Source: Caldicellulosiruptor acetigenus (GTDB taxonomy: Bacteria; Bacillota; Thermoanaerobacteria; Caldicellulosiruptorales; Caldicellulosiruptoraceae). Taken from it: DNA of 64,000 nt. Within the stretch, counting starts at the first letter, position 1. Every line of letters begins with the position of its first letter. Position numbers and translations under genes: made by a program. Below, one piece after another: positions 10,583-14,392 of the stretch. A model generated the notes under the pieces. The model was not told the DNA's origin and searched no databases. It was given only the letters and a program-made list of their open reading frames with translations. The stretch spans positions 1-64,000 of the forward strand of contig NZ_CP113866.1 of the NCBI RefSeq assembly GCF_026914305.1. The letters are read 5' to 3'.

Positions 10583-12588
10583 TTAAATTTTAAAAAACTC
10601 TGTATTTTCAACAAGAGAAAGTGAAACTTGAGCTAAATCCTGAGCATTTTCAGCAATTTCTTCTGACCCGCGTGCAACTTCGTGTGATGCTGCTGCAATT
10701 TCCTGCCCGGATGCAGCTGTTTGTTGAGAGACAGCTGTTATTCTCTCAATATTTTTCATTATTTCAGCATTCATTTCTTTATTACGGCCAAGTTCTTCAA
10801 CTGCATTGTTTACCTCTGGTGAGATTTCGTAGATTGAATCAATTATTAACCTCAAATTAGATACAGCTTGATTTATAACATCTAATTGAACTGAACTTTC
10901 ATTTGTAATCTTTTCACTCAAGCTCAAAATATCAGCAATTTCGGTTTTAATTTCATTAATTATTGTACCAATAATTTTTACTGAGTCTTTTGACTGTTCG
11001 GCCAATTTTCTAATTTCATAAGCTACCACAGAGAAACCTTTGCCTGCTTCTCCAGCCTTTGCAGCTTCAATAGATGCATTCAAAGCAAGTAAGTTTGTCT
11101 GGTCAGATATACTTTTAATTGTTTGAACAACCATTTCAATATTTGCTGTTTTGGATGCAAATGCATCAATTGTTGACTTCATATTTGTAAACTGGTTCAT
11201 AAAATTATTTGATATTTCTACAACTTCGGTGAGTTTCTGTTCACCTTGTTTGGAAAGCATATTTGTATTTTTTGCAAGTTCAATTATATTGCTAAATACC
11301 TGCTCTAACTTTTCAAAGCTGTCCATATATCTTTTTTGGAGCTGAAGAAGGTTTGTAAGAGATTCTGCTATTTCAGTCATTCCTTGAGCAAGCTGGTCAG
11401 TTGAGCTTGAAATCTCTTCTGAAGAAGATGAAATTTCCTGTGATATTGCAGACAGATTCATGGCATTTGAATTTACCTTATTTGCATTTTCTTGTATTGA
11501 CTTTATTATATATGAAATTTTTGATATAGCCCGATTGTATTCTTCAATCATTTCGCTTATTTCTTTTATGATAGAGTTATCTTTAACTGATATATCTAAA
11601 TTTCCCGAGGCAAGGTTTTGAGATACAGCTTTAATTTTTTTGAATGATGAAATTATAAAGGTTGTAAACAAAAGTAAAAGCAGGATAACAATTAATGATA
11701 TAATCAATGTAATAATTATAGCTTGTTTTCTTGTTGAACTAATTACACTTTCTATTTCGCTTTTTTCTATGGCAGAAAAATAAATAAGGTTTGTCAAATT
11801 ATCGTATCTATAAAAAGCAGTCTTTTCTTTTCCTTTATAGACATAGTCGATAAAACCTTCTTTTTCCTTTTTCATTTTCTTCACATATGGTTTTAACACA
11901 GAATCTGTCCCTATACGTGTTTTATCAGGATGTATTAAGACCTTTCCATCAGGTGACAAAACAACAATGTATCCAGACTTGCCAATCTTTGTTTTAACAA
12001 GTCTTTCACCAAAATTTTTCAGACTTATATCTGCACCAAGCACACCAACTATTTTGTTACCATTTTTTACTACTTTTGACACAGAGGTTGTAAGTTCTTT
12101 AGTCACTGCATCTACATAGATACTACTTAAAAGTACTTTGTCAGGGTTTTTGAGCGCTTCTTGATACCAAGGACGTTTTCGAGCATCAAAATCAGCAGAA
12201 AGTTTAACTTCAGGGTACAGAAGCAGTTTTCCATTCTGGTTAAATCCAAAATAAATAAATTGAATATCTGAACCATACGTTGTAGAAATAGCTTTGAAAT
12301 AGTTTAAAAGTTCTGCCTTTTTGTTTTGGTCTTCAAAATTAATATTTTGTAATGTTGGCACAGAGGCTAAAATGTTTATCTGTTCCATAATTTTTTTTAT
12401 AGTCTGTCTCAGCTCTTCTGATGCAGCAAAGGTTGCACTTTTGAATATGCTTTGTTGCTGTGCTCTAAACTCTTACTTACATTTGAGACAGTAAACGTCT
12501 CGACAGTTCCAACTGTTAGGAGCAAAATTACTATTAATGGTATAATTAAAAAAAGCACAAACCGAATCTTAAATTTTTTCATTTTCAT
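10583..12588 (-). pseudogene. Methyl-accepting chemotaxis protein with N-terminal frameshift
   Basis: The 601-residue open part (10583-12388) has a Cache-type sensor region (WYQEAL near residue 75, GVLGADISL near 118), a membrane segment near 225-245, a HAMP-like linker and a full MCP signalling domain (core [20 protein letters not shown]). It lacks the first membrane anchor. That anchor (MKKFKIRFVLFLIIPLIVI) is present upstream from ATG 12582 or 12588, in another frame, and meets the rest through a one-base shift near 12455-12475. Either the gene is broken or the assembly has an error. It lies convergent to the IS element. No chemotaxis genes are adjacent. Confidence 0.8.
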
Positions 12589-12626
12589 ACCACCCGTTTT
12601 TAGTTTTTTTTTTAAAAGTTATAATG

Positions 12627-12655
12627 TATATATACCCTCAAGAAAACACAGACAA
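12627..12655 (-). promoter_or_regulatory. Putative promoter of the chemoreceptor gene
   Basis: On the minus strand a TTGTCT box (12655-12650) lies 17 nt from TATATA (12632-12627), about 40 nt upstream of the chemoreceptor start at 12582. Spacing is ideal for a housekeeping sigma factor; the boxes are moderate matches. Confidence 0.4.
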
Positions 12656-12928
12656 ATATTGTATACATAATACTTTTGGGTGTCAACAAAAAATTTTTTA
12701 AATTGCGATACAAAATACAACTCATCTTTCAATATCTTTCATCCTGCAAACTTAAAAAAATTCTTCCACATATGAAAGTTTACTTTTCCTTTTACACTTT
12801 GATTCTCAATCTCTCATACATAGTTTGAAATTATAAATTCATTATTTTTTTCTGTTGCATTTAATTTTACAACATAAACCATATTATTTTCTTCAAAATT
12901 TTGAGCAACGATTTTGTTTTTAATATGT

Positions 12929-12990
12929 TATAATATTATTAACTTTAGAGTTACTTACTTAAAAGTTACTAACTCTAAAGTTAGTAACTT
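12929..12990 (+). promoter_or_regulatory. -10 box and two overlapping perfect inverted repeats upstream of the ATPase gene
   Basis: TATAAT at 12929-12934 is followed by two mutually exclusive perfect inverted repeats. One pairs AACTTTAGAGTTA (12941-12953) with TAACTCTAAAGTT (12970-12982); the other pairs AAGTTACTAAC (12963-12973) with GTTAGTAACTT (12980-12990). The arms share bases, so only one hairpin can form in RNA at a time; as DNA they form a nested operator. The ribosome site begins 11 nt later. The -35 region is poor. The rest of 12589-13012 is AT-rich with no recognisable gene. Confidence 0.55.
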
Positions 12991-13012
12991 ATAAATCGGT
13001 GAGGTGAGATTG

Positions 13013-14392
13013 ATGTTTATTGGCAGAGAATTTGAACTTCAAACTTTGAATAAACTCTACAGTGAAGATAGGTTTCACTTTGTTATAATCTATGGAAGAA
13101 GGCGTGTGGGAAAAACCACATTATTAGCTGAGTTTTGCAAAGATAAACCTTCAATATTTTTTGTTGCTGAAGAGTACAATGACAAGATGGCTTTGGAGTC
13201 TTTTTCAAATAAGATATTATCATATTTTGGATTAGAAGGGCTTTTAAATGGGTTTGAGTCATGGGAAAAGGCATTTTTGTTCTTAGCTCAAAAAGCAAAA
13301 GATGAACGTCTTGTGGTTGTAATTGACGAATTTCCTTATATGGTAAACTCAAACAAAAGTATTCCTTCAATCCTGCAAAGGCTTATAGATCATAATCTCA
13401 AGAATACAAAGCTGTTTTTGATTGTTTGCGGATCTTCTGTTAGTTTCATGGAAAAGGAAGTGCTTGCGTATAAAAGTCCTCTATATGGGAGAAGGACAGC
13501 ACAGATTGTTGTTGAGCCTTTCAATTTCTTTGATAGCAGAAAGTTTTTCGAAAATTTTTCATTTGAAGAACAGGTCATTGCATATGGTATACTTGGCGGA
13601 ATACCACAATATTTGAGGATTTTTGATGATAGGATGGATATATACGAAAACATAAAAACAAAGATTTTGGACAAGTCTTCTTATCTTTATGAGGAGCCCA
13701 AGCTTTTGATAAAGCAAGAACTGAGAGAACCAGCCTTATACAATTCAATAATAGAAGCAATTGCACTCGGTAGCAGTAAACTGAGTGAAATAGCAACCAA
13801 AGTGGGAGTTGACACAGACAAGTGTGCGAAGTATCTGTCCATTCTTATTGATCTGAAAATAATCGAAAAACTTTCACCAGTTGCAGAAAAAGAAAAAAGC
13901 AAAAAGAGCATATACAGGATAAAAGATAATTTTTTTAGATTCTGGTATCGATTTGTTTTCAGCAACAAGGAATTGATTGAACAGGGCTTGGCAGATGAGG
14001 TCATTGAAAAAAAGATAAAACCTTTCATGAGCCACTTTATAGGGCCTGTCTATGAACAGGTGTGCATTGATTATATGAAAATGCTGAACAAAGAGAAAAA
14101 GCTTCCGTTTACTTTTGAAAAGATAGGAAAATGGTGGGGTACCAATCCAATCAAAAAGTGCGAAGAAGAGATTGATATAGTAGCAATCGGTGAGAATAAG
14201 GCTATTTTTGGAGAGTGCAAATGGAAAAACAAAAAAATGGGAATTAGCGAACTTCACAGTTTAATTGAAAAAAGTAGCATTTTCAATTATGAGGATAAAT
14301 ACTATATCTTATTTTCAAAAAGCGGGTTTGAAGAAGACCTAATGGAAGCTGCTAAAAATAACGAAAGGGTTATTTTACTTGAAAGTTTTTAA
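13013..14392 (+). CDS. AAA ATPase with DUF234 / nuclease-like C-terminus
   Basis: A 459-residue protein of the archaeal-type ATPase family (ATPase_2 plus DUF234). The N-terminal MFIGREFELQTL is diagnostic, Walker A is GRRRVGKTT (residues 28-36) and Walker B ends LVVVIDEFPYM near 110. A winged-helix region follows at about 240-310. The C-terminal part has EEEIDIVAIGENKAIFGECKWK, matching a D-(x)n-ExK nuclease-like pattern. The function is unknown; homologues are common in thermophiles and mobile regions. GAGGTGAG at 13001-13008 supports ATG 13013 (TTG 13010 is an alternative). It stands alone behind the overlapping palindromes. Confidence 0.85.
   Translation: MFIGREFELQTLNKLYSEDRFHFVIIYGRRRVGKTTLLAEFCKDKPSIFFVAEEYNDKMALESFSNKILSYFGLEGLLNGFESWEKAFLFLAQKAKDERLVVVIDEFPYMVNSNKSIPSILQRLIDHNLKNTKLFLIVCGSSVSFMEKEVLAYKSPLYGRRTAQIVVEPFNFFDSRKFFENFSFEEQVIAYGILGGIPQYLRIFDDRMDIYENIKTKILDKSSYLYEEPKLLIKQELREPALYNSIIEAIALGSSKLSEIATKVGVDTDKCAKYLSILIDLKIIEKLSPVAEKEKSKKSIYRIKDNFFRFWYRFVFSNKELIEQGLADEVIEKKIKPFMSHFIGPVYEQVCIDYMKMLNKEKKLPFTFEKIGKWWGTNPIKKCEEEIDIVAIGENKAIFGECKWKNKKMGISELHSLIEKSSIFNYEDKYYILFSKSGFEEDLMEAAKNNERVILLESF

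What the first reader, a model, noticed from the sequence alone, without database searches (positions are those of the whole stretch)
12929..13012. Two mutually exclusive perfect hairpins before a DUF234 ATPase gene
Arms of 13 bp (12941-12953/12970-12982) and 11 bp (12963-12973/12980-12990) share bases. They contain three copies of AGTTACT in alternating orientation between the -10 box and the ribosome site. This could be a nested operator, an RNA switch, or autoregulation by the ATPase, whose family includes DNA-binding members.
Basis: seen in the sequence. Interest (0 to 1): 0.5.

Follow-up and report, generated by a model that had tools for sequence, protein, structure and literature searches.

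The report
Fifteen-base operator lattice before ATPase gene
The two overlapping hairpins are really three to four palindromic protein-binding sites spaced exactly 15 bases apart over the gene's own promoter, and this same 15-base spacing precedes most relatives of the gene that were examined in bacteria and archaea although the letters change, so the encoded ATPase (a widespread, untested candidate anti-virus protein) probably binds there and switches itself off.

Summary
The hairpins are real but are side-effects of something more regular. Window 12940-12998 is a tandem array of 14-bp palindromes (TAACT-N4-AGTTA; three, plus one decayed) at exactly 15-bp spacing. It starts 5 bp after the TATAAT -10 box and ends at the ribosome site of an ATPase_2 + winged-helix + DUF234 gene (PADLOC candidate defence family PDC-S27). 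All 17 relatives of at least 70% identity examined have a significant array, and 111 of 130 distinct upstream regions overall, window included. Among 45 representatives under 70% identity only period 15 (and its multiple 30) stands out; neighbour-gene, downstream and sister-family (DUF4143) controls are flat. The spacing persists while the letters change, including in Archaea. Within-unit symmetry covaries; between-unit RNA pairing mostly does not. The base at half-site position 4 correlates with residue 273 of the predicted recognition helix better than with any other of 406 columns, but independent changes are too few for significance. Best explanation: a DNA operator bound by the gene's own product (autorepression). 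Binding and repression are untested. The RNA switch is not supported.

The parts
12926..12934 (+). extended -10 promoter element TGTTATAAT (hexamer 12929-12934)
   Evidence: sequence; a TGn + TATAAT-like box was found in 20 of 21 upstream regions of >=70% identity (17 of 18 without duplicates; not in L095); no -35/-10 pair by the consensus scan
12940..12953 (.). operator unit 1, TAACTTTAGAGTTA
   Evidence: 15-bp lattice fit
12955..12968 (.). operator unit 2, TTACTTAAAAGTTA (one half degenerate)
   Evidence: 15-bp lattice fit; unit 2 reads TAACT-N4-AGTTA in 18 of the 18 other arrays printed
12970..12983 (.). operator unit 3, TAACTCTAAAGTTA
   Evidence: 15-bp lattice fit
12985..12998 (.). operator unit 4, decayed (TAACTTATAAATCG)
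   Evidence: in register with the others
12999..13006 (+). ribosome-binding region (GTGAGGTG) between the array and the start codon
   Evidence: sequence; a GGTG-type motif lies before the start in most of the aligned relatives
13013..14392 (+). ATPase_2 + winged helix + DUF234 gene (459 aa from the conserved ATG start; the mechanical ORF starts at GTG 13004); match to PADLOC PDC-S27 over residues 2-427
13730..13924 (+). winged-helix domain, residues 240-304; recognition helix residues 268-280 (window 13814-13852), K273 at 13829-13831
   Evidence: AlphaFold2 model pLDDT 95.0, pTM 0.90; structural match to 2qen and 2fna over model residues 1-314 and 1-313
14159..14233 (+). PD-(D/E)XK-like motif D388 ... 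E401-C-K403 (residues 383-407)
   Evidence: sequence and model; D388 in 131 of 134 aligned proteins, K403 in 130, E401 in only 76 (Ser in 55)

Best explanation
The element is a DNA operator, not an RNA switch: a lattice of palindromic sites repeated every 15 bp between the -10 box and the ribosome site of the ATPase gene. The product of that gene most likely binds it in cis through its winged-helix domain, one dimer per 14-bp palindrome with neighbouring dimers touching, and blocks RNA polymerase, so the gene represses itself. SHOWN by computation: the lattice, its exact spacing, its place at the promoter, its co-inheritance with this gene family in bacteria and some archaea, symmetry and covariation within units, and the predicted winged helix. 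SUGGESTED: recognition-helix residue 273 reads half-site position 4 (Lys with C; Val, Pro or Thr with A). INFERRED: binding by the ATPase itself, dimers and cooperative assembly, repression, and any release by ATP or by phage infection.
For: Own genome: the two-unit pattern with up to 2 mismatches occurs only here. In 37 genomes of the class, all 15 with an intact close gene carry the array, as does the one with a broken gene; of the 17 genomes without the array, 15 have no close gene and 2 only fragments. Lag spectrum without any motif assumed, 49 representatives under 80% identity: of lags 6-40 only 15 (mean z 2.36) and 30 (0.69) stand out; 93 neighbour upstreams give 0.28 at lag 15. Palindrome-array score, 45 representatives under 70%: period 15 mean z 4.89, 82% at p<=0.05; nine other periods tested between 11 and 22 lie at 0.05-0.52; controls at period 15 are 0.39 (93 neighbour upstreams), -0.02 (43 downstream regions) and 0.22 (26 DUF4143 upstreams). 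Distant cases with other letters: Sinorhizobium, Mesorhizobium, Rhodothermus, M. jannaschii, Natronococcus. The array overlaps or starts within 10 bp of a TATAAT-like box in 33 of 35 bacterial representatives. Within-unit core symmetry exceeds row shuffles for all three units (p 0.007, 0 of 2000, 0.002); between-unit pairing does not with G-U allowed (p 0.13-0.58). Protein: winged helix in a pLDDT-95 model, matching 2qen, 2fna and Orc1/Cdc6. Coevolution: residue 273 ranks 1 of 406 columns for base 4; 71 rows: Lys/Arg with C 48, other residue without C 15, Lys/Arg without C 8, other residue with C 0. Residue 269 ranks first for A and for T at position 2, and 270 for T at position 3.
Against: No binding or expression data exist here. 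The coevolution is not significant once shared ancestry is allowed for: of 4 supported independent pairs differing at residue 273, 3.0 on average agree and none disagree (p 0.25); of 8 pairs differing in the base, only 3.1 also differ in the residue. Residue 273 leads by little (r 0.70; next 0.64 at residue 152), 8 rows carry Lys/Arg without C, by the other score 273 ranks third behind 277 and 203, and in 9 of the 13 base-by-position scans the top residue lies outside the recognition helix. 19 of 130 distinct upstreams show no significant array. Four of 37 genomes have the array without an intact close gene (G020, G029, G035; G026 with a fragment elsewhere); I read these as leftover leaders, which is inference. 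The p<=0.05 rate in controls is 12-14%, not 5%, and the ATPase set itself gives 16-20% at periods 11, 12, 20 and 22, so single weak cases prove little; three of the six archaeal cases are weak and one negative.
Confidence: 0.74

Rival explanations
1. Operator for an unrelated, separately encoded transcription factor.
For: Nothing computed proves which protein binds. Some genomes carry array-like sites without an intact close gene.
Against: In the own genome the site occurs only here. The lattice follows this gene family in Firmicutes, Fusobacteria, rhizobia, Rhodothermus, a methanogen and at least one haloarchaeon with changed letters but fixed spacing; I know of no single outside regulator with that range. 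Recognition-helix positions of the ATPase are among the best correlates of operator letters, though not in every scan.
Confidence: 0.12
2. RNA leader switch: mutually exclusive hairpins in the 5' untranslated region control translation or mRNA stability.
For: The leader folds better than shuffles (z -3.2), and the array lies between the -10 box and the ribosome site in the window. Strict Watson-Crick pairing of units 1 and 3 is slightly above row shuffles (p 0.03).
Against: The other five between-unit comparisons are at chance (p 0.11-0.76), while all six within-unit comparisons are above it (p 0-0.036). Which units are complementary differs between relatives (arrays listed). No Rfam family matches at E<=1. 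In two haloarchaeal leaders (L198, L199; weak arrays) the repeats end 6 and 4 nt before the start codon, where transcripts are commonly leaderless (recalled, not tested).
Confidence: 0.06
3. Replication- or transposition-type iterons: the array is an origin, or an element end, recognised by the Orc1/Cdc6-like ATPase, and regulation is secondary.
For: The fold resembles Orc1/Cdc6. Some homologues sit on plasmids, one between two orc1/cdc6 genes and others near a ParM/StbA or a ParA gene. Broken copies and leftover leaders hint at gain and loss.
Against: Array position is tied to the -10 box. No excess of arrays downstream of the gene (43 regions, mean z -0.02). In the window it is a single chromosomal gene with no second array of this type in the genome.
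Confidence: 0.06

Closest known systems
PADLOC candidate defence family PDC-S27 (ATPase_2/DUF234, PF01637 + PF03008)
   Same: Match at 1.3e-60 over residues 2-427; all 58 proteins of alignment A2 match at E<=1e-5. They also match PDC-S01 models, more weakly (5.2e-17 for the window protein). An archaeal survey counts 3503 archaeal and 4562 bacterial PDC-S27 systems and describes ATPase domains fused to the PD-(D/E)XK superfamily (PMC12988326, passages seen).
   Different: [quoted passage not shown] The conserved 15-bp lattice and its link to the winged helix are the addition here.
Archaeal AAA+ ATPases SSO1545 (2fna) and PABY2304 (2qen)
   Same: Same ATPase plus winged-helix fold over model residues 1-313 and 1-314, Z 21.0 (rmsd 3.1, 290 aligned) and 22.9 (rmsd 3.0, 295 aligned).
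   Different: The matched chains are about 350 residues and the match stops at model residue 314; the C-terminal DUF234 part is not covered. No DNA target is known to me for them.
Orc1/Cdc6 initiators bound to origin DNA (2qby, 2v1u)
   Same: AAA+ followed by a winged helix, solved with DNA (2qby_A Z 15.5, rmsd 6.8; 2v1u_A Z 12.8, rmsd 8.1).
   Different: They act at replication origins; here the sites lie on the gene's own promoter, and a nuclease-like domain is attached.
Repressors of defence loci such as BrxR, CapW and RptR
   Same: A DNA-binding protein represses a defence locus (BrxR and CapW recalled; for RptR only title and abstract start seen in the listing).
   Different: Those are dedicated regulators; here the candidate effector ATPase itself would be the repressor, on an iterated lattice.
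Plasmid replication initiators that repress their own gene from operator repeats (RepE/RepA type; recalled)
   Same: Winged-helix protein, palindromic operator related to iterons, autorepression.
   Different: Different spacing and fold context; no replicon function shown here.

Membership tests
ATPase_2 / DUF234 (PF01637 + PF03008) | both Pfam models above their curated cut-offs | tested here: met
   105.9 bits vs 33.2 and 95.3 vs 22.5
PDC-S27 | near full-length match to the PADLOC model | tested here: met
   1.3e-60 over residues 2-427, profile 4-437 of 474; 58 of 58 proteins of A2
PDC-S27 | demonstrated anti-phage activity | not testable with these tools
   no experiment; validation described as pending for most such candidates in PMC12988326 (passages)
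P-loop ATPase | Walker A Gly-Lys and Walker B Asp-Glu | tested here: met
   G33, K34, D105 and E106 in 134 of 134 aligned proteins
PD-(D/E)XK nuclease | D ... (D/E)-X-K active-site residues | tested here: inconclusive
   window protein has D388, E401, K403; across the family D 131, K 130, but E401 only 76 of 134 with Ser in 55
Winged-helix DNA-binding protein | helix-helix-recognition helix-wing fold | tested here: met
   H240-251, H257-264, H268-280, strands 284-287 and 300-303 in a predicted model of pLDDT 95.0
Autorepressor with iterated operator | iterated palindromes over its own promoter, in cis, conserved with the gene | tested here: met
Autorepressor with iterated operator | protein binds the sites and lowers transcription | not testable with these tools
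   needs gel shift and reporter
RNA leader switch / riboswitch | covariation of the competing stems in relatives | tested here: not met
   five of six between-unit comparisons at chance (one p 0.03), within-unit symmetry above chance; no Rfam match at E<=1
Replication iteron / origin system | array acts as an origin bound by the initiator | not tested
   only fold resemblance and neighbours on some plasmids

The most novel reading that the evidence does not exclude
The PDC-S27 ATPases are lattice-forming, sequence-specific DNA binders. An invariant 15-bp pitch, kept from bacteria to archaea while the letters drift, would then be set by the geometry of the ATPase assembly rather than by the DNA code. 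The promoter-bound filament would be the silent resting state of a candidate anti-virus nuclease; losing it (through ATP turnover, or DNA competing for the protein) would release both gene expression and the protein, so that one molecule is sensor, repressor and effector.
Probability: 0.27. Interest if true: 0.85.

Novelty: new variant of a known kind. Interest (0 to 1): 0.64.

Why it matters
PDC-S27 systems number thousands in bacteria and archaea (PMC12988326, passages), and ten searches of open-licence PubMed Central papers listed no paper whose title or abstract start is about how they are controlled; subscription journals and preprints were not covered. A conserved, readable DNA target gives a direct biochemical handle: gel shift, footprint and reporter tests can be run in laboratory E. 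coli with any member. The fixed 15-bp pitch predicts a defined protein-DNA assembly, and the residue-273/base-4 pairing predicts which swaps should change specificity. The lattice also works as a marker for such genes and for leaders apparently left behind after gene loss.

Tried and rejected
RNA switch: tested by folding, Rfam and unit-by-unit pairing counts; not supported.

Known RNA family or intrinsic terminator near the array: none found (over 12400-13300; over 12800-13060).

Sister family DUF4143 as a sharer of the lattice: 26 of 30 fetched loci gave a usable upstream under a crude start-codon rule (at least one start, L212, looks wrong); no period-15 signal (mean z 0.22).

Arrays on the downstream side as element ends: no excess.

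First AlphaFold job with 15 similar sequences was poor (pLDDT 56.5); replaced by a 58-sequence alignment. Those are the window plus 57 loci picked by hand from the 80.

Rows dropped: of 110 genes located, 5 were left out (L012, L078, L079 broken or partial; L120, L155 with too little upstream). Of the 36 loci of the second set, L190 had no hit and L181, L182, L187, L191, L177, L178 (partial, distant or repeats) were left out, giving 134 upstreams; four of these repeat another locus letter for letter, so 130 are distinct. L173 and L179 were also left out (132 rows). For the coevolution test 27 of 132 arrays were dropped for a low score or distance over 60 nt from the start; then representatives under 70% (39) or under 90% (71) identity were used. 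In one search, 17 hand-listed arrays (window and relatives of 61% identity or more; 15 distinct) were used; L004 and L017, printed, were left out because a unit is decayed.

The automatic operator call picks a wrong register or place in some weak cases, seen by eye (for example L102, L107, L132, L150, L157, L159, L162, L166, L170, L200). L132 counts as a Lys-without-C exception for that reason; I left the count as computed.

Shuffle p-values vary a little from run to run: L199 has p 0.04 and 0.0625.

Full report
WHAT IS THERE. Together they form a simpler object: 14-bp palindromes TAACT-N4-AGTTA set head to tail with one base between them, so with a strict 15-bp period: 12940-12953, 12955-12968, 12970-12983 and a decayed fourth at 12985-12998. 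Any two units can pair as inverted repeats, which is why two 'mutually exclusive' hairpins appear. The array begins 5 bp after TATAAT (12929-12934) and ends at the ribosome site; the conserved start codon is ATG 13013. The array score is 23.9, against at most 12.4 in 2000 dinucleotide shuffles. The RNA of this strand also folds well, which follows from the symmetry.

THE GENE. The downstream protein (459 aa) is ATPase_2 + DUF234, matches the PADLOC candidate defence family PDC-S27 over residues 2-427 and, more weakly, PDC-S01 models, and has no NCBIfam match above cut-off. An AlphaFold2 model from 58 homologues (pLDDT 95.0, pTM 0.90) shows an AAA+ ATPase, a winged helix (240-304, recognition helix 268-280) and a C-terminal part with D388 and E401-C-K403 on strands as in PD-(D/E)XK folds. 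Its best structural matches are 2qen and 2fna, then plant NLRs and Orc1/Cdc6; they cover residues 1 to about 320. Walker residues are invariant in 134 aligned proteins; D388 is kept in 131 and K403 in 130, but E401 only in 76 (Ser in 55), so nuclease activity across the family is open.

CLOSE RELATIVES. A DNA search of 61 genomes and a protein search of 37 genomes of the class gave orthologues of 72-77% identity in two bacterial families; those aligned show the array in the same place after the -10 box. A two-unit pattern with up to 2 mismatches finds nothing else in the own genome. Of the 37 genomes, 15 have an intact close gene and the array, 1 a broken gene and the array, 4 the array without an intact close gene (G020, G029, G035; G026 with a fragment elsewhere), 2 gene fragments without array (G016, G034), and 15 neither (my count; some of the last group hold the more distant paralogue).

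DISTANT RELATIVES. One genome-collection scan (the best 80 of 466 loci were kept) gave loci of 43-77% identity, including Thermoanaerobacter wiegelii, Caloramator, Fervidobacterium, Lachnospiraceae, Selenomonas and MAGs labelled Chloroflexi, Synergistaceae and Endomicrobia (MAG labels may be wrong). A plasmid search (162 records, of which I fetched 13, plus one phage-collection record) added Fusobacteria, Rhodothermus, rhizobia, haloarchaea and Methanocaldococcus jannaschii. Reading the upstreams shows the 15-bp pitch with other letters: AAATCACGATTTACT in Ruminococcus, TACTTACAAGTAGTC in one Lachnospiraceae group, TAATCTAAATTATTA in Sinorhizobium, GTAATCAGGATTACG in Mesorhizobium, GAAATCTGGATTTCC in Natronococcus and TACTCCAGAGTATAA in Rhodothermus.

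STATISTICS. (a) Lag spectrum with no motif assumed, 49 representatives under 80% identity: among lags 6-40 only 15 (mean z 2.36; 65% at z>=2) and 30 (0.69; 27%) stand out; the next is lag 11 (0.39; 6%). 93 upstream regions of neighbouring ORFs give 0.28 and 4% at lag 15. (b) Palindrome-array score, 45 representatives under 70%: period 15 mean z 4.89, 82% at p<=0.05 and 71% at p<=0.01; period 30 1.69, 31%; periods 11-14, 16-18, 20 and 22 between 0.05 and 0.52, with 7-20% at p<=0.05. Controls at period 15: 93 neighbour upstreams z 0.39, 14% at p<=0.05; 43 downstream regions -0.02, 12%; 26 upstreams of the sister family DUF4143 0.22, 12%. (c) All 130 distinct upstreams, not thinned for relatedness: 111 at p<=0.05, 91 at p<=0.01; 18 of 18 at >=70% identity (window included), 5 of 6 at 50-70%, 54 of 67 at 42.5-50%, 30 of 33 at 36-42.5%, 4 of 6 below 36% (one search gives 116 of 134 with four repeats counted). 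Of six archaeal upstreams, M. jannaschii and Natronococcus are clear (p 0.003 and 0 of 300 shuffles), Haloferax and Halobaculum weak (p 0.03 to 0.04), Natronomonas borderline (0.04, 0.0625), Haladaptatus negative (0.11).

PLACE ON THE PROMOTER. In 33 of 35 bacterial representatives a TATAAT-like box (at most 1 mismatch) was found within -25 to +20 of the array start; its end lies between 10 bp before the array and 17 bp inside it (a few of these arrays are weak calls). A protein on the array would cover or adjoin the -10 box and the start site.

DNA OR RNA. In 15 distinct arrays with three units, the four central bases of each unit are more self-complementary than when rows are shuffled (p 0.007, 0 of 2000, 0.002 with G-U allowed; 0.022, 0.002, 0.036 with strict pairs). 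Complementarity between units is at chance with G-U allowed (p 0.22, 0.13, 0.58) and with strict pairs for units 1-2 and 2-3 (0.11, 0.76), while units 1-3 reach p 0.03. Selection therefore acts mainly on the dyad of each unit, as for DNA bound by dimers. Half-site positions 1-5 are self-complementary in 72-84% of 102 units from 39 representatives, positions 6-7 in about half.

WHO BINDS. The one thing I find common to these leaders is the gene behind them. Half-site position 4 is C in some clades and A in others. Of 406 alignment columns, residue 273 (Lys in the window, inside the recognition helix) correlates best with it (r 0.70; 0.75 for Lys/Arg; next 0.64 at residue 152): of 71 representatives 48 have Lys/Arg and C, 15 neither, 8 Lys/Arg without C, and none C without Lys/Arg. 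By a different score on 39 representatives, 277 ranks first, 203 second and 273 third for that base; residue 269 ranks first for A and T at position 2 and 270 for T at position 3; in the other nine of 13 scans the top residue lies outside the helix. Allowing for ancestry there are four supported contrasts in residue 273, of which on average 3.0 agree and none disagree (p 0.25), and eight in the base, of which 3.1 agree and 4.9 show no residue difference. This is a pointer, not proof. The own-genome paralogue (G000:C1:2651822-2653192, 42-44% identity) has its own 15-bp leader with different half-sites (ATACTTT; p 0.0025).

MECHANISM. The most economical account is cis autorepression: the ATPase dimerises on each palindrome, fills the lattice side by side, and excludes RNA polymerase from the promoter. 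Fifteen base pairs is about 1.4 helical turns, so neighbours would sit on nearly opposite faces; a close-packed helical assembly is a reasonable inference. Whether ATP state or infection releases it is unknown.

LITERATURE. 'DUF234' as a whole word occurs in one paper, on Campylobacter hypothetical proteins (listing only); COG1672 with ATPase in two genome papers (listings). PDC-S27 is named in two papers: PMC12988326 (passages read) and PMC13356809 (passages read); the passages do not mention regulation. PMC1913061 and PMC5760070 were read as passages only. These searches cover open-licence papers only, so absence from them is weak evidence of novelty.

VERDICT. A real, widely conserved operator lattice; the RNA-switch reading is not supported; self-binding by the ATPase is likely but untested.

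Noticed in passing
L034 from 3002, L036 3054-3095, L037 3055-3081, L058 49-90, L061 1501-1527: In one related genus (g4) two to three 15-bp-type palindromes sit behind a ~324-aa gene (HTH-like by eye only) with no intact ATPase gene after them; a TGTAAT-like box precedes them in L036. Probably leaders left after gene loss; a T-run downstream could also make them terminators.
   Followed up: partly
G000:C1:722998-723029 (L242 around 1501): A second copy (2 mismatches) of the own-genome paralogue's promoter-array, followed by a similar ribosome site but running into the end of an AraC-like gene (by eye): apparently a leftover leader without its gene.
   Followed up: partly
window 12383-12600, minus strand: The dCache chemoreceptor gene (ORF 10583-12388) has its membrane-anchor start in another frame: the reading frame appears broken between about 12410 and 12475. 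Pseudogene or sequencing error.
   Followed up: partly
window 12812-12875: An intergenic stretch with the inverted repeat TGTTGCATTTAATTTTACAACA recurs at two other places in the own genome (79-81% identity) and at many in the genus. Nature unknown.
   Followed up: partly
L035, L033, L038, L039, L077, L041: Decayed or insertion-broken copies of the ATPase gene are common in relatives (stops inside, fragments, transposase-like genes between array and gene remains), suggesting frequent loss.
   Followed up: no
alignment of 134 homologues, residue 401 of the window protein: The second acid of the PD-(D/E)XK-like motif is Ser in 55 of 134 proteins, so part of the family may lack cleavage or use another acid.
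   Followed up: no
L205 (Natronococcus occultus plasmid 2): The homologue lies between two orc1/cdc6 genes and has a very clear four-unit array ending 43 nt before the start.
   Followed up: no
G000:C1:1085158-1085454 (L231): The own genome holds a DUF4143 remnant with a stop inside.
   Followed up: no
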